Shown piece by piece: positions 3,435-36,181 of a stretch of 64,000 nucleotides of DNA. The position numbers and the translations under genes were made by a program. How positions within the stretch are numbered: the stretch's first letter is position 1; every line of letters starts with the position of its first letter. The DNA is taken from NCBI GenBank assembly GCA_000247545.1, contig CP003316.1, forward strand, positions 715,233-779,232, read 5' to 3'. This DNA is from Pyrobaculum oguniense TE7 (GTDB lineage: Archaea; Thermoproteota; Thermoprotei; Thermoproteales; Thermoproteaceae). The notes under the pieces were generated by a model. The model was not told the origin of the DNA. It saw nothing but the letters and a program-made list of their open reading frames with translations, and did not search any database.

Positions 3435-4864
3435 GGCGTGAAGGGAGCGGGGAGGGAGGAGGACATCAAGGATGGCTTCGTCTTGGGCTGGCTTGCGACG
3501 GACGCGTCACTCCTAGGAAGTATTGTGAAGGCGAATATAACCTCTCTCTTCCAAGCCGCTTTGTACAAGGCCGCAGGCAGGAGGGGGTGAAGGCCGAAGA
3601 TGTAGGGACTGTCACCGGAGCGGGGTTCAAGGTCTACTACCACGGCTACAGCACCGGGCTATATCAACGTTACCGCGGGACGGCTGATGGGATGAGGGCT
3701 GGGCGTCGTGTAGATCCTCGACGCATCAAAGGAGGGTGTGGAGAAGAACTTGGCTAGGCCGGAGGGAGCGAGGAGCGCCGTTGGAGCGCTCGTCGATAAG
3801 CTTCTGGAGGAGGGCGGGGATCTCCTCGTATCCAGCTGTCAGCGCATCGGCTGGTGGCGCGGAGGAGCGCGCTAAAAACGTCGAGGTGGAGCACGTCTTG
3901 CGCGGCCCGCCCGGCGCGGAGCCGTGGCTGGAGGCGAGGCCTAGAGACGAGAGGGGGGACGAGATAGCCCGCATAGTTATCAAATGGGACGGCGAGGGTC
4001 TACGCGCAGTTTTCAACGGCGATAAGGAGAAGGCCGAGCGCCTTGGCTCTATACTCAACGCCTTGGGGGCAGACGTAAAGTTTAGAGAGCACGGCGGGGA
4101 GTAACTAGTGGAGCTGTCTACGAGCTCCATCGCCTCAGTTAGCCACCCCGGATGGCAGAACGCGGTTAGGGTCATCGTGGAGGAGCTGTACAAAAGGGGG
4201 AGGATCGACGAAAAGGAAAGGGGCCGCCTGCTGAAAATTATAGAGGCCGGCCCGATCACCGCGAGGATCAAGAAGGCGGCTGAGGAGATTCTGACCTTGG
4301 AGGCGGCTAGGATGATGGACCAGGCGGAGCACTCAGCATACAGCCGCGTCTACTACCCGTTAATGGATTTATTGCTGAGAGACACCTCAGAGGCCGAATT
4401 CGCCCAGTTCTTCACGGCGGCGATATTCGGCGACGGCTCTGTTTACCCGCATATTGTATGCTTGATATTAGGCGAATTCGATTCGGACGAGTTGCCTTAG
4501 ATAGATTCCACAAACTGGCGCTTTGGCTGGCCGTGGCCGAGAAGTACCGCCCCGTCTTCAAGAAATACGGCGTGGACATCACGCCGAGTGTGTACGTCGG
4601 AGAGGGTCGCATGCGCCTAGCCTTCGACCCGAAAGAGCCGGTCTCCTCTTCGCGTTAGGCGGCGGGCCAGTGTGGCGCCTCTACGATAAATACGTCGACG
4701 AGATTGGGAGGAACCTCTGGGATGCAGGGTTTATTAAGGCCGAAGAAATGTTTGAAACGGTGAGGGAGGCCTTTAAGGACGTAAAGATCCGCTGGGGGAT
4801 AGACGAGAGCGGAGAGAAGCCGGTGCTCAGGATGCGGTTTGTGAGGGAGGCGGGCGGTAGTTAA
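3435..4864 (+). pseudogene. decayed 5' and middle part of a PaREP2-family gene
   Basis: Translated fragments in shifting frames match the general pattern of PaREP2 proteins, a repeated Pyrobaculum family of unknown function. They include GFVLGWLATDASLLG (frame of 3438), GYINVTAGRL (near 3654), GDKEKAERLGSILNALGADV (frame of 3736) and LALWLAVAEKYRPVFKKYG (frame of 4458). Lesions include in-frame TAA stops at 4102-4104 and 4862-4864, and frame changes near 3580, 3655, 3830, 4500 and 4640. The open frames 3736-4104, 4108-4500 and 4523-4864 are pieces of this one gene. The 5' end is lost beside the HEPN-MNT gene. The family assignment is from memory. Confidence 0.7.
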
Positions 4865-5527: not shown

Positions 5528-6245
5528 GTTGTTTAAGAAGGCCAGCCTGGAGGAGGGTAGGGACTACACTGTGTACAGCGGACAAGGCGTTATCCGCCTC
5601 ACAGTGCCCGAGGCGCTGTGGACGATTGCGTGGAGGGCGAAGAAGGGCGACGAGAAGGCCGAAAAGGCGCTGGGCCAACTACTCGAGGCGGCCGAGAGGC
5701 TGGGCATTAGGCAGTACTTCAAGGAGAGGATCAGGCTGGTGTTGATGGCCGGCACAAAAAACGCCGTTGGGAAGAAGATGACGCTGGAAGAAAAGGGCAT
5801 CACGGTGGAGATCACCGGCTTCAAGGTGGAGTTGGTGTCTTTCGAAGATCCAAACAAGACGTGCAACCGGCCGGCCGAGCTCTGTCGGCGGAGGGTAACC
5901 ATCAGGTACAAGATAGGCGACAAGGAACAGGAATTCACAGTGGCGTGGGGGGTGGGCGAAGAGAATACAATTCGCGCCAGCGTGAGGATCAATGCGCTAT
6001 ACAGAGCCGCCGCGTTGATAGCCGTCGCGATTCGTGAAGGAGACGAGGAGGAGAAGAAGAATAGGATAATCAACAGGGCGAGGAGGGGCAGCACGGTGAC
6101 CCCCTCCTTCGACAACCCACTCGCCATGGCCCAATACGACGCATCGCTACTGGGATGGGCGATGGAAATACGGAGGAGGGGCAACGAGCTTCGCAGAGAA
6201 AAAGGCAAATCTACAAGGGAGACTCGCCGATACAAAACTTTATAA
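5511..6245 (+). pseudogene. PaREP2-family fragment, C-terminal region
   Basis: This is a 244-residue open frame from TTG 5511, overlapping the previous fragment by 17 bases. The protein similarity crosses a one-base shift near 5497, where one frame reads up to GGGYIRVKN and this one continues EDLGKAHELFKKA. It contains the blocks LLEAAERLGIRQYF, MTLEEKGITVEITGFKVE and INALYRAAALIAVAI, which I associate with the PaREP2 C-terminal domain. It stops at 6243-6245, immediately before the fibrillarin TATA box, so it may be shortened at its 3' end. Alone it could still encode a stable domain. Confidence 0.65.
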
Positions 6246-6247
6246 AT
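6238..6247 (+). promoter_or_regulatory. TATA box of the fibrillarin gene
   Basis: CTTTATAAAT is centred about 23 bases before ATG 6266, the spacing expected for a leaderless archaeal transcript. It supports the internal ATG rather than the longer upstream frame. Confidence 0.7.
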
Positions 6248-6265
6248 AGCGGAGTCGACGGGGGC

Positions 6266-6973
6266 ATGTCTATCGAGGTGGTTGACGTAAGGCCCCACGA
6301 ACGCCACTACGGCGTCTATATGGTTAGGCTGGAAGACGGAACTGAGAGAATAGCTACTAAGAACCTCACGCCGGGGAAGCGAGTGTACGGGGAGAGGCTG
6401 ATAAAGTGGGGCGGCGATGAGTACAGGGAGTGGAACCCCTACCGCTCCAAGCTGGCGGCAGCTATTGTAAATGGCCTCAAATTAGTTCCTATAAGGGAGG
6501 GCACCCACATGCTGTATCTCGGGGCCGCATCTGGCACTACTCCAAGCCACATCAGCGACATTGTTGGGGAAAAGGGGCTGATATACTCCGTCGAGTTTTC
6601 GCCTCGTGTCTTTAGGGAGTTTATGGAGAAGCTCGTGGACCAGGGCAGGAGGAACGTAGTACCCATACTCGGCGACGCGAGATTCCCCTATCAGTACGCC
6701 CACTACATAAAGGGCGTCGACGTGGTGTATATAGACGTGGCCCAGCCGGCCCAGGCCAAGATACTAGCCGATAACGCAGACTACTTCTTGAAGCCGGGCG
6801 GATACGTAATGCTGGTAATAAAGGCCATGTCTATAGACGTCACGGCGCCGGCTACTGAGACTTTTAAGCAGGAGATAAATACATTAAAGGAGAGAGGCTA
6901 CGAGATTTTGGAGACCGTCCACCTGGAGCCTTACGACACTGCCCACGCGATGGTAATAGCTAGGAAAAAATAG
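6266..6973 (+). CDS. flpA: fibrillarin-like rRNA/tRNA 2'-O-methyltransferase
   Basis: This 235-residue protein is the SAM-dependent methyltransferase of archaeal box C/D ribonucleoproteins, guided by C/D RNAs to ribose 2'-OH sites on rRNA and tRNA with Nop5 and L7Ae. SAM-binding motif I is [11 protein letters not shown] near residue 87. An acidic YIDVAQPAQ strand and a C-terminal HAMVIARKK strand complete the fold. The start at ATG 6266 is chosen because a TATA box precedes it by ~23 bases and the product [11 protein letters not shown] has normal length. The nop5 gene, often next to flpA in archaea, is absent. The upstream neighbour is PaREP2 debris. Confidence 0.93.
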
Positions 6974-6974
6974 A

Positions 6975-8024
6975 CTAAAGGCTTTTCAAATACTCGTCTA
7001 CGAACTGGGCAGCCCTCATTCCGGAGCCGAGGGCTTTCCCGATAAGTGAGGGTCCTGTCACTACGTCTCCCGCCGCGAAGACTCCCTTCCTCGTTGTCAT
7101 CATCTTTTCGTTTACCTTTATGGTGCCGTCTGGGTTAAACTCTATGCCTGCGCAGTTGCCAGGCGGCGTGGGGATCTCCCCAGCCGCTATGAGGGCTGTG
7201 TCGAACTCCTCCTCGAACTCGCTGCCGGGCACAGGCTCCGGCCTAGGCCTTCCTGACTTGTCGGGCGGGCCTAGGCGCATTCGTATAAATCTTACTTTTT
7301 CCAGTCTGCCGCGTCCAAGGAAGGCTACTGGGTTTAGCAACTCTCTGAACTCTATACCCTTTGCGATAAGCTCTGTCTCAATGGTCTTCCGGCCTGCCGG
7401 TGCCTCGTTGATAGTCCGTCTATACGCCACAACCACCTTCTCGGCGCCCTGGAGCTTTGCCTCAAGCGCTGCGTCGACGGCTGTCAAGCCGGCGCCGACG
7501 ACTAAGACCTTCTTACCGGTGGGGTAGACCTTGTCCTTGGGTAGGTATCCCAGCTGGTTTGCATATATCCTCGCCAAGTAGTCCAAAGCCTTGTACACGC
7601 CGGGCAAGTCCTCGCCTGGGATTTCCAGAGATCTACTCCTCCACGTACCCGTTGTTATGACAACAGCGTCGTATTTCTTAATAATGTCTTCGAGGTTTAC
7701 AAACTCTTTTACAAAGAGGAGCGCCTCGTGTTCACGGGGCTTCTCCCCACAGTAGACAAAGGTAGAGGTGAAAAATCGGGCCCCCGCCTCTGCCAGCTCT
7801 TTGACCCCCTCCCGTACTCCTTCTTTTGGGACCCGAAAGGCAGGTATGCCAAAAATCAACAAACCGCCGGGCTCGGGCAAGGCGTCGAAGACATCCACCT
7901 CGTGGCCGTTGCACAGTAGGCCTCCGGCCGCGCCGAGACCCGCAGGACCCGCGCCAATTATCGCGACTTTTTTGCCGGTTGGAGGTTTTTTTGTATTGGG
8001 TTTACACCTCAATAAGAAATGCAT
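6975..8024 (-). CDS. GltD-like FAD/NAD(P)H oxidoreductase
   Basis: This is a 349-residue pyridine-nucleotide flavoprotein of the glutamate synthase small-subunit family. The FAD-binding GAGPAG lies at 24-29, the NAD(P)-binding VGAGLTAVDAA at about 176-186 and the closing FAD motif ATG-like AAGDVVTGPSLIGKAL near 317. The N-terminal cysteine/iron-sulfur domain of bacterial GltD is missing, so it resembles the short archaeal form. No glutamate synthase large subunit is nearby. It may pass electrons between NAD(P)H and a ferredoxin-type partner. It is convergent with flpA (1-base gap) and lies 27 bases downstream of cmk on the same strand. Confidence 0.8.
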   Translation of the reverse strand: MHFLLRCKPNTKKPPTGKKVAIIGAGPAGLGAAGGLLCNGHEVDVFDALPEPGGLLIFGIPAFRVPKEGVREGVKELAEAGARFFTSTFVYCGEKPREHEALLFVKEFVNLEDIIKKYDAVVITTGTWRSRSLEIPGEDLPGVYKALDYLARIYANQLGYLPKDKVYPTGKKVLVVGAGLTAVDAALEAKLQGAEKVVVAYRRTINEAPAGRKTIETELIAKGIEFRELLNPVAFLGRGRLEKVRFIRMRLGPPDKSGRPRPEPVPGSEFEEEFDTALIAAGEIPTPPGNCAGIEFNPDGTIKVNEKMMTTRKGVFAAGDVVTGPSLIGKALGSGMRAAQFVDEYLKSL

Positions 8025-8051
8025 AGGTAAAGAAATTTCCCAATTTTTAAG

Positions 8052-8606
8052 TTAGCAAACCTTCTTGGAGTACTTAAAGCTCAAGGTTGTGCAGGTAAAA
8101 TCGACGCTGATCCTGACAGCGTCGTTCACAGAGAGAAACGATGTGTCTACTACCAAGTCGAAGATGGAGAGATCTTTTATGTCAATTCCGTAAATTGCCA
8201 AGTATCGCCTTCGGTTGAGCTCTTCCCGTTCTGTAACCTCTCTATACGCCTCCTCTAGGCTCTTCCCGTCGCGGAGGGCCACGCGCCTTGCCCTAACCTC
8301 GGGGGAGGCCTTAAGGTAGATGCACACGTCGGCGTATGGCCTCACAACCCACGCGGTTAGGTGGCCTTCTAACACCACGTTGCCTGCCTTAGCCCTTTCC
8401 ACGGCGGCCGTGTCGACTGACTTGTCTATTTCTGGGTTAGACTCGGCGTATTTGTGAAATTCTAGAAAATCCATACCCATCTTAGTAGCCATTTCCCTAA
8501 ACAGCGTCCCAGAGGAGACTAGGGGTACTTTCAAAACCCTGGCAATTTCTCTGGCTATTGTGGTCTTACCGCTACCCGGCTGTCCAGAGACGGCTACAAC
8601 TACCAT
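8052..8606 (-). CDS. cmk: cytidylate kinase, archaeal type
   Basis: The 184-residue P-loop kinase phosphorylates CMP/dCMP with ATP. The Walker A GQPGSGKTT sits at 8-16, followed by SSGTLFREMA, typical of the archaeal Cmk family, and an RDGKSLEEAYREVTEREELNRRRY lid-type segment rich in arginine. It starts at ATG 8606, 3 bases after the stop of the upstream L34e gene. The rpl34e-cmk pair is a common crenarchaeal arrangement, and the two are probably cotranscribed. Confidence 0.9.
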   Translation of the reverse strand: MVVVAVSGQPGSGKTTIAREIARVLKVPLVSSGTLFREMATKMGMDFLEFHKYAESNPEIDKSVDTAAVERAKAGNVVLEGHLTAWVVRPYADVCIYLKASPEVRARRVALRDGKSLEEAYREVTEREELNRRRYLAIYGIDIKDLSIFDLVVDTSFLSVNDAVRISVDFTCTTLSFKYSKKVC

Positions 8607-8609
8607 CTA

Positions 8610-8867
8610 CTACTGGCCCCGCACCGCGAGCCGGATGGCGCGTGCTATTACCTTGTGAGAATAAACACCGCCGTATGGCCTGCTTGGCGCCCTAATCTTC
8701 ACACCTGTGCGGTAGATCTTCCCGTTCATGCCTCCAATCACAAGGCCAGTTATGGGACACCGCGGCGCGCCCAATGCCCGCTTCTCGTAGTGAATTACAG
8801 TACGGCTCCCCGGCGTTTTGACCATTACCCTCCTCAGACTTCTAGAGCGGTACGCCGGCCGAGGCAT
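8610..8867 (-). CDS. rpl34e: 50S ribosomal protein L34e
   Basis: The 85-residue basic protein begins [14 protein letters not shown]. The CPITG segment and the [16 protein letters not shown] tail are characteristic of archaeal/eukaryotic L34e. A longer frame begins at 8918, but the ATG at 8867 gives the family length and lies ~21 bases from a minus-strand TATA-like box at 8885-8894. It is the first gene of a short operon with cmk. Only one cysteine is present in the CPITG segment, so the zinc site seen in some L34e proteins is incomplete here. Confidence 0.92.
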
Positions 8868-8884
8868 GGCTCCCTCTAAAAACC

Positions 8885-8894
8885 AATATAAAAA
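8885..8894 (-). promoter_or_regulatory. TATA-like box of rpl34e-cmk
   Basis: The minus strand reads TTTTTATATT here, about 21-24 bases before ATG 8867, consistent with leaderless initiation of the L34e operon. Confidence 0.55.
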
Positions 8895-8918
8895 CATTGA
8901 GGCCATTACTTCACCCAC

Positions 8919-9300
8919 AAGCCAACCCCCCTCACGAAGGGGGAGGTACCAACTAATCCCTCATTGTGATAGCGACAGCTCGGTGAGCATAAGCCATAGT
9001 GTAGCTACCCAGCTGTTGGATATCTCCGTTGAGGGTGGCGCTGGGTCCGGTACAAGGCTATACCTAGTGCGTATAGCATATATTGCATATATTCCTTCAT
9101 TGTATCTCCTCATTATTATGTCTCACTTACCGGCGTGGTTATCAGCGCGTTGCTGAGATAGCTACGGCTCATATTGCTTAGTCCTTAGTCTATTACCGCA
9201 GTTTTGGGTTGAGAGTTTTTAGAGGTTAGTTATCAGCGGTGTGGTGTTTGGGATATGTCCTGAATAGTGGGGGTAGTGTTGGAGACGGTGGTTGGCCTAA
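8919..9300. other. long intergenic region between rpl34e and the EF-1alpha gene
   Basis: About 400 bases contain no supported gene. The segment contains a short C-run/G-run hairpin (CCCCCTCACGAAGGGGG at 8926-8942) and AT-rich tracts near 9070-9120. I looked for tRNA and box C/D RNA signatures and could not support one. It could hold an unannotated small RNA or a decayed gene. Confidence 0.4.
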
Positions 9301-9306
9301 GAAAAA

Positions 9307-9314
9307 TTTATAAG
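9307..9314 (+). promoter_or_regulatory. TATA box of the EF-1alpha gene
   Basis: TTTATAAG lies ~25 bases before ATG 9336 within a purine-rich flank (GAAAAA), a strong archaeal promoter layout. It indicates leaderless translation from 9336 rather than from the upstream GTG at 9267. Confidence 0.75.
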
Positions 9315-9335
9315 TGTTTAAATAACGTCGCCTTC

Positions 9336-10670
9336 ATGCCGTCAATAATACTGCCACCTAAACCAACGGCACTACAAAAACCGCACATAAACCTGGCAGT
9401 GGTGGGACACGTTGACAACGGTAAGTCAACGCTGGTTGGCAGGTTGCTGTACGAAACTGGCTACGTCGATGAGAAGGGGTTCAAGGAGATTGAGGAGATG
9501 GCTAAAAAGATGGGTAAAGAGGATTTCGCCTTTGCGTGGATTCTCGACCGCTTCAAGGAGGAGAGGGAGCGCGGCGTCACTATTGAGGCGACGCACGTGG
9601 GATTTGAGACTAACAAGCTGTTTATCACCATCATTGACTTGCCTGGCCACCGCGACTTTGTTAAGAACATGATAGTAGGCGCGAGCCAGGCCGACGCCGC
9701 TTTGTTCGTGATTTCTGCCCGTCCTGGAGAGTTTGAGGCCGCAATAGGCCCGCAAGGACAGGGAAGAGAGCACCTATTCCTAATAAGGACGCTTGGCATA
9801 CAGCAGATTGTCGTAGCAGTAAACAAGATGGATGTTGTGAACTACGACCAGAAGCGATATGAGCAAGTCAAGTCCGAGGTTTCTAAGCTATTGAAGCTTC
9901 TTGGCTATGATCCGAGCAAAATACACTTTGTGCCTGTAAGTGCTGTCAAGGGAGACAACGTTAGGATCAAGTCGTCAAATACGCCGTGGTACAACGGCCC
10001 CACGCTTCTAGAAGTTCTTGACACCTTCCAGCCGCCGCCGAGGCCTACCGACAAGCCTCTGAGGCTCCCAATACAAGACGTCTTCTCCATCACAGGTGCA
10101 GGTACTGTGGTAGTGGGCCGTGTCGAGACGGGCGTGTTGAAAACAGGAGACAGGGTCGTTGTGGTCCCGCCCGCCAAAGTAGGCGATGTCCGCTCTATTG
10201 AGACGCACCACATGAAGCTTGAGCAGGCCCAGCCGGGAGACAACGTCGGTGTAAACGTAAGGGGCATTAATAAAGAGGACGTCAAACGCGGCGATGTACT
10301 CGGCAAGGTAGACAACATACCGACAGTTGCAGAAGAGATAGTTGCCCGTATAGTAGTCCTGTGGCACCCGACGGCAATAGGCCCAGGCTACGCGCCTGTG
10401 ATGCACATACATACAGCCACTGTGCCCGTCCAGATCACAGAGCTAGTATCCAAGCTAGACCCACGTACGGGCCAAGCAGTGGAGCAGAAGCCGCAGTTTA
10501 TCAAGCAAGGCGACGTCGCAATAGTGAAGATTAAGCCGCTGAAACCTGTAGTGGCTGAAAAGTTTAGCGACTTCCCGCCGCTCGGCCGCTTCGCCCTCCG
10601 CGACATGGGCAGAACTATTGCCGCTGGCCAAATTCTTGAAGTGAAGCCAGCCCAGGTACAAATAAAGTAA
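9336..10670 (+). CDS. tuf: translation elongation factor EF-1alpha (aEF1A)
   Basis: The 444-residue GTPase delivers aminoacyl-tRNA to the ribosome. G1 is GHVDNGKST (24-32), followed by switch II DLPGHRD, NKMD and a C-terminal beta-barrel pair (GRVETGVLKTGD, then GRFALRDMGRTIAAG). The region KEERERGVTIEATH fits the archaeal/eukaryotic form. The start at ATG 9336 (MPSIILPPKP) is set by the TATA box 25 bases upstream; the longer frame adds an atypical extension. It is a single-gene unit facing herA convergently. Confidence 0.97.
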   Translation: MPSIILPPKPTALQKPHINLAVVGHVDNGKSTLVGRLLYETGYVDEKGFKEIEEMAKKMGKEDFAFAWILDRFKEERERGVTIEATHVGFETNKLFITIIDLPGHRDFVKNMIVGASQADAALFVISARPGEFEAAIGPQGQGREHLFLIRTLGIQQIVVAVNKMDVVNYDQKRYEQVKSEVSKLLKLLGYDPSKIHFVPVSAVKGDNVRIKSSNTPWYNGPTLLEVLDTFQPPPRPTDKPLRLPIQDVFSITGAGTVVVGRVETGVLKTGDRVVVVPPAKVGDVRSIETHHMKLEQAQPGDNVGVNVRGINKEDVKRGDVLGKVDNIPTVAEEIVARIVVLWHPTAIGPGYAPVMHIHTATVPVQITELVSKLDPRTGQAVEQKPQFIKQGDVAIVKIKPLKPVVAEKFSDFPPLGRFALRDMGRTIAAGQILEVKPAQVQIK

Positions 10671-10691
10671 CCGTTTTTAGCCCAAATCAAC

Positions 10692-10712
10692 AGAAAGCCT
10701 TTCTGGCTTTCT
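10692..10712. terminator. possible hairpin after the EF-1alpha gene
   Basis: An 8-bp perfect stem (AGAAAGCC / GGCTTTCT) encloses a 5-base loop, 22 bases after the tuf stop codon. A T-run (CCGTTTTTAG) comes before the stem rather than after it. Archaeal termination relies mainly on T-runs, so the hairpin may instead stabilise or process the 3' end. Confidence 0.35.
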
Positions 10713-10793
10713 AAAACTACGACGACGATTATTCATATAAGTTGTGGGGTTTGGGAAACTTGCCTTATTATGTTTTTTCCAGCTTTTTCTTCG

Positions 10794-12365
10794 TTATACT
10801 TGTCTTCTTATGCTTGGGGTTATTCCGCCGTGTTGCGTCCACCTTTGGTCAACTACTATCATTAGCGGCACTGGGACTGAGATTCCTGTTACTACCGCTT
10901 CTGCCTCGTCTAGGGTTCTCAGCGGCCTAGGGTCGTCTAGGTGCTCCGCGACTGTGGCGACGTATCGCAGGTCGTGGGGGTTTATCATTCTTTTGAATAT
11001 CTGGGTCATTGCCTGGGATACGACGTCTGGGTCCAACTTTGTAGGCCGTTGGGTGATTAGGCACAGCCCCAGGCCGAATTTCCTGCCTTCTCTTGCTATT
11101 TTTGCTATGTAGCTTTTGGCAACTGAAGAGCCAGCCGCCGGGGCGTAGTTGTGGGCTTCTTCGATTATGATTAGTGTTGTGAGGTTTTTCCTCCGTGTGG
11201 AGACTCTGTAGAGCTGGTCTAGGAGTACGGCGAGGAAGAGTTGCTGGTCGAGGATGTCGAGGCCGGATATGTCGAAGATGTGTATTGACGGAGTGGTGAG
11301 GTACATCTCGGGGTCTATTAGCTTGATTGGTTCTCCTTGATACGTCTCGCCGTATCTCGTAATGAATACGGGGCTTGTGTAGAAGAGGGCTTTTAGACGT
11401 CCTTCAAGTCCTCTTAGTGACATCTCCCCCGCAAAGCCGGGCGGGGCTGCGTGTTTGCCGCCTTCTAGGACTTCTTTTATTAGCTCTTCTACGGATGTGA
11501 GAGGTTGTCGCTCGCCGTAGCTAGTGGCGCTTTGCCACCCCTCTTCAAGTATTCGTCGTTGTGCGTCCGTAAGGCCGTATAGTAGGTCTAGGATCTTTTC
11601 TAGGGTGCGTAGGGGGATGCTACGTGGGTTTAGGCCGATTCTCGTATATGTGCGGGGGATGCCGTAGCGTTTCATAAAGGCTTGGTCGAGGTGAGTTACG
11701 TCTGTTTTGCCCACGACGAAAATCCTCACCTTTTCCGATACGTGCTTGCCCTCTTCCGAGGCCGGCACCGCCATAGAGGAGTACTCTCCATGGGGGTCTA
11801 TCACCACTATTGGGATGTCCAACGCCGAGAGCCTCTCCACTATCACACCGGCGAGGTAGCTCTTCCCGGCGCCGGTGCTGGCTAGAATTGCGCAGTGGTG
11901 CGTGACTAGCCTCTCAGCGTCTATGTATGCAGGAATCGAAGTGCCTTTTATTTTTCCTATTGATATGTACGTTCCCTCTTCTCCAGGTGCGAAGAATTGT
12001 TCAAGTTCCTCGGGTGTGGTGCTGTACACGTAGCTCAGAGGCTTGACGGGCTTCTGCGGTTTGAGGATTTTCCGGTCTCTCCTGGCGCCGAGTACCACGG
12101 CTTTGGCCTCTGTGTAGTACAGCGCCTCTTCTATTCCAAGAGTTTCTTTAATCTCCTTTACTGTAGACTCTTCGTCGAAGTGGGCAATTAGGCGCGGGTC
12201 CACCACGGCGTTCCTATGCCGTATGGCTACTACCCTGGAAATGACTCTAACTCCGTCGATCTCCGTCGCCACAAAAGAGCCTACGTCAAGTTCAACGCCT
12301 CTAAACGGCTTAAAGACGTAGTAGTACAGAGATGGCGATTTGACAACTACACCGATCTTAGCCAC
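10794..12365 (-). CDS. herA: HerA-type hexameric DNA-translocating ATPase
   Basis: The 523-residue protein has an N-terminal HAS-barrel (residues ~1-145). A RecA-like ATPase follows, with Walker A ASTGAGKS at 162-169, a VIDPHGEYS motif and Walker B LIIIEEAHN near residue 397. HerA pumps double-stranded DNA for end resection together with NurA, Mre11 and Rad50. None of these partners is in the window, unlike the classical herA-mre11-rad50-nurA operon. The start is GTG 12365, ~25 bases after a minus-strand TATA-like box near 12386-12393. It could be a paralogue dedicated to another function. Confidence 0.88.
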   Translation of the reverse strand: MAKIGVVVKSPSLYYYVFKPFRGVELDVGSFVATEIDGVRVISRVVAIRHRNAVVDPRLIAHFDEESTVKEIKETLGIEEALYYTEAKAVVLGARRDRKILKPQKPVKPLSYVYSTTPEELEQFFAPGEEGTYISIGKIKGTSIPAYIDAERLVTHHCAILASTGAGKSYLAGVIVERLSALDIPIVVIDPHGEYSSMAVPASEEGKHVSEKVRIFVVGKTDVTHLDQAFMKRYGIPRTYTRIGLNPRSIPLRTLEKILDLLYGLTDAQRRILEEGWQSATSYGERQPLTSVEELIKEVLEGGKHAAPPGFAGEMSLRGLEGRLKALFYTSPVFITRYGETYQGEPIKLIDPEMYLTTPSIHIFDISGLDILDQQLFLAVLLDQLYRVSTRRKNLTTLIIIEEAHNYAPAAGSSVAKSYIAKIAREGRKFGLGLCLITQRPTKLDPDVVSQAMTQIFKRMINPHDLRYVATVAEHLDDPRPLRTLDEAEAVVTGISVPVPLMIVVDQRWTQHGGITPSIRRQV

Positions 12366-33867: not shown

Positions 33868-34126
33868 CGGATCTCCAAACAACGGATATTATTAAACTTC
33901 ACACAAATACTCTTAAGAAGTCCGGTCACGGACGCCAGAGAGACGTAATGAGACACACGCCGCACTCCCGAGAGCTGGACACAATGCCAAGACACGGAAT
34001 CTAGAGTATAAACTATCCGAAGACTAACCAGCACCTGAGCCCCATCAAGTACGCCGTTGAAAACACTGTTTAATATTCACGAGCTATATTCCGCAAACTT
34101 AATTAACCAGTGACTATCCATGTCCA
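33868..34126. other. intergenic region upstream of a four-gene cassette
   Basis: The ~260 bases contain no supported gene. AT-rich boxes near 33886-33893 (minus) and AATTAAC near 34100 (plus) could be the promoters of the flanking genes. A GTCCGGTCACGGAC-like short palindrome sits near 33919-33932. No C/D RNA boxes could be paired convincingly. Confidence 0.4.
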
Positions 34127-34339
34127 ATGATTATACACACATCGCAGCTGAACATCGTTGAAGATGTGGAAGCGCTTCTGGCTAAGTACAAAGTGAAGCC
34201 GATTAAAATAAAAGGGCAGAGGCTCAGTTTCTACTGGCCGCCCCAACCTGTTGGGTTGCCACTGGACTTGTTAAAATATTTCCCACAAGACATGTACGTC
34301 GTCTTTAAAGGCAGAAACACACTAATTGTAGTTCCATGA
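34127..34339 (+). CDS. unknown small protein, gene 1 of a four-gene coupled cassette
   Basis: The 70-residue protein appears alpha/beta: an N-terminal helix (NIVEDVEALLAKY), then strands RLSFYWPP, DMYVVFKG and NTLIVVP. There are no cysteines, signal peptide or known motif. ATG 34127 is ~25 bases after an AT-rich promoter-like stretch. Its TGA overlaps the next ATG (ATGA at 34336-34339), so translation is coupled. The family is not recognised. Confidence 0.65.
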   Translation: MIIHTSQLNIVEDVEALLAKYKVKPIKIKGQRLSFYWPPQPVGLPLDLLKYFPQDMYVVFKGRNTLIVVP

Positions 34340-34473
34340 GAAACATCATCAAGAAAAAAGTTGGCGAATTACAAATAAACCCGCGCATAAAAGAAGTGCT
34401 TTTACAAGTACTTGGCCCAGATGAAGACGTCTACGTAGAAAGCACAGGCAAGGGGGTACGAATTATCCTATGA
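34336..34473 (+). CDS. unknown 45-residue protein, gene 2 of the cassette
   Basis: The tiny open frame, MRNIIKKKVGELQI onward to GKGVRIIL, fills the gap between two clear genes with ATGA overlaps at both ends (34336-34339 and 34470-34473). That is strong positional evidence that it is translated. Predicted structure is a helix followed by strands (DVYVES, GVRIIL), resembling the C-terminal half of gene 1. It could be a small partner subunit. No family is recognised. Confidence 0.6.
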   Translation: MRNIIKKKVGELQINPRIKEVLLQVLGPDEDVYVESTGKGVRIIL

Positions 34474-34895
34474 TAGTAGTGCGATCCGGCAGTGTGGAGA
34501 ACCTCATCTGGCAAGTGAGGTCGCTCCTCCCGCAGATAGAGACCACGCCCATCCTATTGGCCCAGAGGCAGGTGGGGAACTACCTAATTGGCCTCGGGAC
34601 ATTGGGTTATATATACGAGGCGCTTTCTTCTGTGCTGGAGACACTGGTCGAGGCGCAGAGAATGGCGAAAGACCTCGGTCTCAGGGACTATTCAGTCGTC
34701 ATAGGGCCAACCGAGAGCTACCTAACAACCATGCCTATACCGGAGGTGATGCCCCCGTTGCCCCAGCCGAAGCCAGTTCCCCCACTGCCCAGAGAGGAGG
34801 TTAGGCTGAACACCTTTAACTGTTCAGACTTGACCCGAGGGCTGGTGAAATTCTGCGTCGACAACGTAGAAATTGCCTACTACCTTTCGCGATGA
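34470..34895 (+). CDS. unknown protein with proline-rich linker, gene 3 of the cassette
   Basis: In this 141-residue protein, residues 1-75 look helical (QVRSLLPQIETTPILLAQRQ, SSVLETLVEAQRMAKDLG). Residues ~90-112 are a proline-rich linker (MPPLPQPKPVPPLPREE). The C-terminal ~30 residues contain two cysteines (NCSDLTRGLVKFCVDN). It is coupled to its neighbours by ATGA overlaps at both ends. The linker suggests two binding modules. No family or catalytic motif is recognised. Confidence 0.62.
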   Translation: MIVVRSGSVENLIWQVRSLLPQIETTPILLAQRQVGNYLIGLGTLGYIYEALSSVLETLVEAQRMAKDLGLRDYSVVIGPTESYLTTMPIPEVMPPLPQPKPVPPLPREEVRLNTFNCSDLTRGLVKFCVDNVEIAYYLSR

Positions 34896-35221
34896 TCCAG
34901 CTTACACTTTCAGAGCTGGAGTCTCTGCTAACAACGCTCCGGGAACACGCAGAGAAGTACAGGACAAACCGCCCCGTGCTCGAGGCACTAGAAGAGCGGT
35001 GGCTAAAGTTTACGGAGCTGGCCTTCGCCTTCGGCATAGATCTAAAACCGGCGGAGGGGGTTGAATTCTACGCGGGAGGCCCCCTGCCAGACAACACTGA
35101 TTTCATAAGGAAAATAGACAGGATGTTGTCGACAGTGAAAAAACTTAAAGAAGTGTACGGAGATGTCAAAGTAATTGTAGACCTCGAAATTAACATTAAA
35201 AAGACCGTAATCAAGATATAA
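34892..35221 (+). CDS. unknown helical protein, gene 4 of the cassette
   Basis: The 109-residue protein is mostly helical with charged heptads (SELESLLTTLREHAEKY, IRKIDRMLSTVKKLKEVY) and ends in two strands (VKVIVDLEINIKKTVIKI). It overlaps gene 3 by 4 bases. The TATA-like box of the following CBS gene covers its last codons (35216-35224), so the cassette probably ends here as a unit. The function is unknown. Confidence 0.62.
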   Translation: MIQLTLSELESLLTTLREHAEKYRTNRPVLEALEERWLKFTELAFAFGIDLKPAEGVEFYAGGPLPDNTDFIRKIDRMLSTVKKLKEVYGDVKVIVDLEINIKKTVIKI

Positions 35222-35243: not shown

Positions 35244-35663
35244 ATGCCATTGGTGAAGAAAAGAGAAGTCCCGCTTAGAGTTTCTGACATAATGACAAGA
35301 AATGTAGTTACAGCCAAAAGGGATGACAAGATAAAAGACATTGCCGCTAAGATGTACGAAAATAAGGTGGGAAGCGCCGTTATTGTAGATGACGAAGGCA
35401 AGGCTATAGGTATAATCACAGAGCGGGATCTAGTATACGTAATAGCCCGCGGGCTCTCCCCCGATACCCCGGCGTGGATGGTGATGACAGAAAACCCCAT
35501 CGTTATAGATCAGGACGCACTAGTCGTGGAGGCCATGGAAAAGATGAGAGAGCTCAACATTAGGCACCTCCCAGTAGTCGACAAGGCGGGAAAAGTCGTA
35601 GGCGTAGTGTCCTTCAGAGACATTGTGGACTTTGCCGCCACCATGTTCTCCCTACTGAGATGA
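35244..35663 (+). CDS. tandem CBS-domain protein
   Basis: This 139-residue protein is one Bateman module: two CBS motifs, VSDIMTRNVVTAKRDDKIKD ... GSAVIVDDEGKAIGIITERDL and MTENPIVIDQDALVVEAMEKM ... HLPVVDKAGKVVGVVSFRDI. Such modules bind adenine nucleotides and act as energy or ligand sensors. No other domain is attached. A TATA-like ATATAAATA at 35216-35224 lies ~24 bases before ATG 35244. The stop overlaps the ATG of the DUF309 gene (ATGA), so the two proteins may work together. Confidence 0.88.
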   Translation: MPLVKKREVPLRVSDIMTRNVVTAKRDDKIKDIAAKMYENKVGSAVIVDDEGKAIGIITERDLVYVIARGLSPDTPAWMVMTENPIVIDQDALVVEAMEKMRELNIRHLPVVDKAGKVVGVVSFRDIVDFAATMFSLLR

Positions 35664-36181
35664 GGTACTTGCTTATCGTAGAAAACCCAGGCTACACTCC
35701 AGGCCACCGCGAGGAGTTGCTAAGAAGGATAAGAGCCGCGCTCCCAGTCATCTCAGTGAGGGTGGCGTCGACACACGTAGAGGTTGACGTTAAGTCAGAC
35801 GACTTGGCCAAGGCTAAAGAGACAGTGGAAAGGGTAATAGGCGGGAAGGTGTTGGAGGCGGTGGATATAACTTTTGAAGATGTGCCTGGAGGAGTCGAGA
35901 CCTACGTAAGGCTTTTCAACGCCGAGAGGTTCTGGGAGGCACACAACGCCTTGGAGGGGCTCTGGCGGCGGACCAAATCCCCAACTCTCCAAGGGCTTAT
36001 AATGCTGGCCGCTGCCTTTGTCAAACTGCAAGAGGGCTCGCCGGAGAAGTTCGAGCGTTTGTTAAAAGAGGCGATATACCTAATAGAGGAGGACGTCGGT
36101 TGCATAAAAATAAAAGAAGTAAAAAAGCTTGCAGAGAAGGCGTTGTTGGAAAAGAGGCCGTTTAAAATAACATGCTCTTAA
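35660..36181 (+). CDS. DUF309-family protein with an N-terminal extra domain
   Basis: The 173-residue protein has an N-terminal ~75-residue alpha/beta segment. The DUF309 helical bundle follows with its hallmark FNAERFWEAHNALEGLWRR, then LQGLIMLAAAFVKLQEG. The family is of unknown function; the conserved E, H and R suggest a binding site. It is translationally coupled to the CBS protein upstream and overlaps the sir2 gene by 20 bases convergently. Confidence 0.78.
   Translation: MRYLLIVENPGYTPGHREELLRRIRAALPVISVRVASTHVEVDVKSDDLAKAKETVERVIGGKVLEAVDITFEDVPGGVETYVRLFNAERFWEAHNALEGLWRRTKSPTLQGLIMLAAAFVKLQEGSPEKFERLLKEAIYLIEEDVGCIKIKEVKKLAEKALLEKRPFKITCS

What the first reader, a model, noticed from the sequence alone, without database searches (positions are those of the whole stretch)
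34127..35221. Four-gene cassette of unknown small proteins joined by ATGA overlaps
Four consecutive genes (70, 45, 141 and 109 residues) are each coupled by a 4-base overlap, and none resembles a known family. The third has a proline-rich linker and two C-terminal cysteines. Such strict coupling implies a stoichiometric complex, making this the best candidate for an undescribed system in the window.
Basis: partly seen in the sequence, partly recalled or inferred. Interest (0 to 1): 0.65.

Follow-up and report, generated by a model that had tools for sequence, protein, structure and literature searches.

The report
Conserved four-gene cassette, probably pilus-linked
Four tiny overlapping genes that no database recognises are kept together in nearly every known Pyrobaculum-family archaeon, and in the family's deep branches they sit among type IV pilus genes, so they most likely encode an undescribed soluble helper complex of that pilus.

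Summary
Genes A (70 aa), B (45), C (141) and D (109) at 34127-35221 of Pyrobaculum oguniense are real, consecutive and joined by three 4-base ATGA overlaps. None has a Pfam, NCBIfam, PDB-sequence or fold match. All 19 Thermoproteaceae genomes held carry A, C and D; the genes stay adjacent in 18, and in the 19th D lies elsewhere. Nothing was found in 62 other genomes of the class, nor elsewhere in a pattern scan of 84,980 species.

New here is the context. In Pyrobaculum and Thermoproteus the cassette is followed by a DUF309 gene. In the divergent genus g3 (two genomes) ABCD lies between a TadC-ATPase pilus operon and a pilus-linked surface-protein gene. In the deep-branching Pyrobaculum G007, ABC lies between the same two partners, and a second A lies between two pilin genes. 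The pilins resemble the cryo-EM pilin of P. arsenaticum (6W8U).

Best reading: a soluble accessory complex of this type IV pilus (confidence 0.4). It is inferred from context only; two Thermoproteus genomes with a broken pilus ATPase keep ABCD intact. Rival: a lineage-specific cytosolic complex unrelated to pili (0.35).

The parts
34098..34107 (+). TATA-like element (acttaattaa) about 25 bases upstream of the first ATG, fitting a leaderless transcript that starts at gene A
   Evidence: An AT-rich TATA-like box lies 20-30 bases before gene A in nearly all genomes compared, most clearly as gcaaaatatataaa in Pyrobaculum and ttataaagg in genus g3; promoter function is inferred
34127..34339 (+). 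gene A, 70 aa, pI 9.6, no transmembrane segment
   Evidence: found in 19 of 19 Thermoproteaceae genomes
34336..34473 (+). gene B, 45 aa, pI 9.3
   Evidence: between A and C in all genomes where the region reads cleanly
34470..34895 (+). gene C, 141 aa, pI 5.1: N-terminal strand and helical hairpin, proline-rich linker, C-terminal hairpin with two invariant cysteines
34821..34823 (+). codon of invariant Cys118 of gene C
34854..34856 (+). codon of invariant Cys129 of gene C
34892..35221 (+). gene D, 109 aa, pI 5.9: strand, 41-residue helix, conserved loop (LKPAEGVEFYAGGPLPDN), second helix, strand
34336..34339 (+). ATGA overlap A/B
34470..34473 (+). ATGA overlap B/C
34892..34895 (+). ATGA overlap C/D
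35244..35663 (+). context: CBS-pair protein, 139 aa, next in the same direction; present at this place in Pyrobaculum, not in Thermoproteus
   Evidence: PF00571 at 5.1e-33; neighbourhoods
35660..36181 (+). context: DUF309 protein, 173 aa; linked to ABCD in 16 genomes of Pyrobaculum and Thermoproteus
   Evidence: PF03745 at 5.3e-17

Best explanation
ABCD is a translationally coupled unit, led by its own promoter, that makes four small soluble proteins which most likely form one cytosolic complex. The complex most likely serves the PilA-type type IV pilus of the Thermoproteaceae, as an accessory or regulatory module of its cytoplasmic motor (TadC-like platform and TadA/ArlI-like ATPase). Shown: the gene unit, its conservation, its restriction to the family, and its position among pilus genes in two deep lineages. 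Inferred: that the four proteins bind each other (basic A and B, acidic C and D), that C118-C129 form a disulfide, and that the complex acts on the pilus motor.
For: Present in 19 of 19 Thermoproteaceae genomes, one copy per genome (a second A in G007 apart), and not found in the rest of the class. In genus g3 (G017, G018) the order is PilA-like pilin, second pilin, TadC, ATPase, cy71, mem168, then A-B-C-D, then the WD854 gene on the opposite strand; A starts 48 bases after mem168 (the two pilins and TadC are seen in G017 only, because the G018 contig begins at the ATPase). In G007 C-B-A lies between WD854, convergent, and TadC-ATPase-cy71-mem168, divergent. Each partner is a pilus gene on independent evidence: ATPase PF00437 3.8e-23, ArlI 3.6e-45, BasE 5.7e-45; TadC as UpsF 7.4e-13; pilin to 6W8U at 1.9e-15 and 7e-18; WD854 relatives lie near pilA and/or pil132 homologues in nine of the Pyrobaculum genomes examined. 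G007 also has an extra intact A between two pilin genes. The orthologous ATPase has the same distribution: 19 of 19 Thermoproteaceae, while nothing else in the order exceeds 38% identity.
Against: In 16 of 19 genomes, including the window's, ABCD is not near pilus genes but next to DUF309. In g3 ABCD has its own promoter-like element, so it is adjacent to the pilus operon but not clearly part of it. Two Thermoproteus genomes have an interrupted pilus ATPase (G015, of the same size as T. tenax, with a short duplication that shifts the frame; G012, with an internal loss), yet their ABCD is intact. The shared distribution is one clade, so it counts as one event. Whether the g3 and G007 arrangements are one ancestral state or two events is undecided (AU p 0.339). 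No interaction or expression data.
Confidence: 0.4

Rival explanations
1. ABCD is a lineage-specific cytosolic complex with a general cellular task (for example in division, chromatin or RNA metabolism) that has nothing to do with pili; its place among pilus genes in two deep lineages is inherited neighbourhood.
For: Universal, mostly single copy and conserved through the family, even where the pilus ATPase is broken. Not linked to pili in 16 of 19 genomes. D is highly conserved (44-83% identity).
Against: The cassette lies between pilus genes on both sides in g3 and in G007, although their internal order and orientation differ, and a second A lies between two pilin genes. No general cellular gene is a constant neighbour.
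Confidence: 0.35
2. ABCD acts with DUF309 (and in Pyrobaculum the CBS-pair protein) in a metabolic or nucleotide-sensing task; the true unit is ABCD-(CBS)-DUF309.
For: DUF309 lies downstream in the same direction in 16 of 19 genomes; in several Thermoproteus genomes D and DUF309 overlap or abut. CBS pairs commonly bind adenosyl nucleotides (general knowledge).
Against: In g3 the DUF309 gene lies elsewhere, and no relative was found in G007. CBS is not at this place in Thermoproteus, and a kinase-like gene lies between D and DUF309 in G011. DUF309 proteins occur far beyond this family (general knowledge).
Confidence: 0.15
3. A toxin-antitoxin, defence or other mobile module of small overlapping genes.
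For: Small size and ATGA coupling; three A relatives give a weak HicA hint (best E 0.02).
Against: Present in all family members, essentially one copy, mostly in conserved synteny; no relative in IMG/VR viral contigs for D; no toxin or antitoxin family reached a significant score, and the AbrB/MazE test of A and B was negative. The PADLOC library was not searched.
Confidence: 0.03

Closest known systems
Thermoproteales type IV pilus systems described by Makarova, Koonin and Albers 2016 (PMC4858521), probably their subclade 4E
   Same: The T4P locus next to ABCD in g3 and G007 has the parts they describe: a conserved ATPase, TadC, a membrane protein and one further cytoplasmic component, with PilA-family pilins often elsewhere
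   Different: The passages of the paper that I read do not describe a four-gene cassette of this kind; supplementary tables could not be opened, and the assignment to 4E was not tested
Pilus of Pyrobaculum arsenaticum, PDB 6W8U (PMC7347861)
   Same: The pilins beside the pilus locus of g3 and beside WD854 in P. oguniense are homologous to its pilin (E 1.9e-15 and 7e-18)
   Different: That work solved the filament; the cytoplasmic assembly parts are unknown
Archaellum cytosolic proteins ArlC/D/E (ArlX in Crenarchaeota)
   Same: Would be analogous in role: small, lineage-variable soluble proteins that belong to a T4P-like motor
   Different: No Pfam match of any ABCD member to the archaellum families even at E up to 10; no archaellum is reported in most Thermoproteales (PMC4858521)
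AbrB/MazE swapped-hairpin domains
   Same: B, and the end of A, resemble the helix-hairpin pattern by eye
   Different: Tested and not supported: profile comparison P 0.029 (B) and 0.28 (A); HMM scores at or below 5 bits

Membership tests
Type IV pilus accessory gene set (Thermoproteaceae PilA system) | Gene neighbourhood with T4P ATPase, TadC and pilins | tested here: inconclusive
   Met in G017, G018 and G007, between pilus genes on both sides; not met in the other 16 genomes
Type IV pilus accessory gene set (Thermoproteaceae PilA system) | Same distribution as the orthologous pilus ATPase | tested here: met
   Both in 19 of 19 Thermoproteaceae; neither in the 26 other genomes of the order; but this is a single clade, and the ATPase is broken in two of the 19
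Type IV pilus accessory gene set (Thermoproteaceae PilA system) | Physical association with the pilus motor or a pilus defect on loss | not testable with these tools
   No interaction or phenotype data available
Archaellum ArlC/D/E/X | Sequence match to the archaellum families in Pfam | tested here: not met
   No such family among matches of any member at E up to 10
AbrB/MazE domain | Profile match to the family | tested here: not met
   Alignment of AbrB domains from the same genome against A and B not significant; no PF04014 hit
Toxin-antitoxin or defence module | Patchy, mobile distribution and a known toxin or antitoxin domain | tested here: not met
   Universal and essentially single copy in the family; no domain; no viral relatives of D found
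   Adjacent in 18 of 19 genomes
   Only single-chain folds were possible; C pLDDT 75, D pLDDT 78, no solved fold matched

The most novel reading that the evidence does not exclude
ABCD is a cytosolic ring or switch complex of a type IV pilus, evolved once in the Thermoproteaceae and unrelated in sequence to ArlC/D/E or any bacterial pilus part, which governs assembly or sensing by the P. arsenaticum-type pilus.
Probability: 0.2. Interest if true: 0.65.

Novelty: new variant of a known kind. Interest (0 to 1): 0.45.

Why it matters
Type IV pili of Thermoproteales are reported to be exceptionally diverse and little understood beyond the filament (PMC4858521, PMC7347861). A universal four-protein soluble partner would be a concrete handle on how the pilus motor of these archaea is built or controlled. 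If the pilus link is wrong, the four families are still a core, family-wide gene set with no known function, well suited to structure and pull-down work.

Tried and rejected
Family searches of each gene and of every aligned homologue in Pfam, and of the window genes in NCBIfam: nothing significant; the few E of 0.001-0.05 hits (e.g. HicA for A, coiled coils for D) are scattered single-member hits. PDB by sequence and profile for A, C and D: nothing. Foldseek of C and D against PDB and of D against viral models: no E below 0.7, only generic helical matches. Paralogy among A, B, C and D: not supported by profile comparison. AbrB/MazE membership of A and B: not supported. A weak D hit in another family of the order (G062, E 2e-4) is a 159-residue protein with a different-looking sequence beside an AAA ATPase and no A, B or C; rejected as a helix match. 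Weak A hits elsewhere in the own genome fall at unrelated, well-explained genes. Viral contigs: no relative of D.

Full report
What the window is. The window lies at 715233-779232 of a chromosome of 2,436,033 bases with a second contig of 16,887 bases; these are the published sizes of Pyrobaculum oguniense TE7 (PMC3558965).

The observation. Gene A is led by a TATA-like box about 25 bases before its ATG, and a comparable AT-rich box precedes A in nearly all other genomes compared, so the unit probably has its own promoter and a leaderless start. B/C overlap is kept in 16-17 of 19 genomes, A/B in 17; C/D varies between 4, 1 and 14 bases. Overlaps of this kind are common in the window, 6 of 49 same-strand neighbours, so the overlaps say 'operon', not 'complex'.

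What the proteins are. All four lack transmembrane segments and signal peptides (strongest 19-residue hydropathy 1.2, and inspection). A and B are basic (pI 9.6, 9.3), C and D acidic (5.1, 5.9). The AlphaFold models (pLDDT 75 and 78) give C a strand, two helices, two strands, a proline-rich linker and a C-terminal hairpin; D a strand, a 41-residue helix, a conserved loop, a second helix and a strand. The two cysteines of C are invariant; a disulfide is inferred. No sequence family, solved sequence or fold matches.

Distribution. Single-sequence searches find C, D and A in all 19 Thermoproteaceae genomes held. C by sequence is absent from the other 62 genomes of the class and by profile from the other 26 genomes of the order. 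D by profile gives nothing credible outside the family, and a pattern scan of 84,980 species found D only in Pyrobaculum, Thermoproteus and other Thermoproteaceae/Thermoproteales records. A-B-C-D are together in 18 genomes. In G007 D is on another contig; that contig runs on past D and the A-B-C contig runs on past C, so the separation is not simply a contig end, though G007 is a draft assembly.

Two contexts. In Pyrobaculum (apart from G007) and Thermoproteus the cassette is followed by DUF309, with a CBS-pair gene between in Pyrobaculum, and near it lie a nucleotidyltransferase, GltX and Sir2. In genus g3 and in G007 it lies among type IV pilus genes. In g3 genome G017: pilin 171, pilin 133, TadC 504, ATPase 493, cy71, mem168, A, B, C, D, then WD854 reversed; in G018 the contig starts at the ATPase and the rest of the order is the same. 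In G007: pilin 171, WD854, then C-B-A reversed, a 124-residue gene, TadC, ATPase, cy71, mem168; a separate contig has an intact second A between pilin 133 and a second pilin 171. The partners are pilus genes on independent grounds: ATPase (PF00437 3.8e-23; ArlI and BasE models at E of about 1e-45), TadC (UpsF model 7.4e-13), pilins (6W8U, E 1.9e-15 and 7e-18), and WD854, whose relatives lie near pilA and/or pil132 homologues in nine Pyrobaculum genomes. WD854 has N-terminal signal-like and C-terminal membrane segments (inspection), like the S-layer-like proteins described for such loci (PMC4858521).

Weight of the link. A random four-gene unit would fall at one of the few internal junctions of a seven-gene pilus cluster in well under 1% of cases (my estimate, assuming about 1,500 genes), but I did not fix the hypothesis beforehand. 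The grouping is found in two lineages with about 63% identical ATPases, with internal rearrangement, which favours function; whether it is one ancestral state or two events is open (G007 outside the other Pyrobaculum plus Thermoproteus is not rejected, AU p 0.339). Against it: 16 of 19 genomes lack the link; g3 keeps a separate promoter-like box; and in two Thermoproteus genomes (G015, 1,841,542 bp as published for T. tenax, PMC3189178; G012) the pilus ATPase is interrupted while ABCD is intact.

Verdict. The best single explanation is a soluble accessory complex of the PilA-type pilus (0.4); a general lineage-specific complex is nearly as likely (0.35). Novelty: four new protein families; in kind, probably a new variant of pilus accessory machinery.

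Noticed in passing
L090 (G015:C1:769001-789000) 9263-10733: The pilus ATPase of the T. tenax-sized genome is interrupted by a short tandem duplication that shifts the frame; in G012 (L089 9484-10453) an internal part is missing. Sequencing error or real loss is open.
   Followed up: partly
L065 (G007:C23) rc 3775-4002: A second, intact copy of gene A between two pilin genes in the deep-branching Pyrobaculum G007.
   Followed up: partly
L096 (P. oguniense 2050001-2064000) 6113-10828: A pilA homologue, a second pilin, two ORFs that look like pieces of one membrane glycosyltransferase, and a 901-residue surface-like beta-propeller protein in a row: probably the second half of the pilus gene set of this species.
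   Followed up: partly
window 35244-35663: CBS-pair gene between D and DUF309 in Pyrobaculum but not at this place in Thermoproteus.
   Followed up: no
L030 (G010:C8) 9105-9446 and L035 (G011:C186) 11192-11400: Gene A (and in G010 also B) reads with a shifted frame in these draft genomes; probably sequence errors.
   Followed up: no
L038, L039: In genus g3 C and D overlap by 14 bases instead of 4.
   Followed up: no
L062 (G062:C90) 6237-6716: A 159-residue small protein with a predicted long helical tail beside an AAA ATPase and a SWIM-like gene in another family of the order.
   Followed up: no
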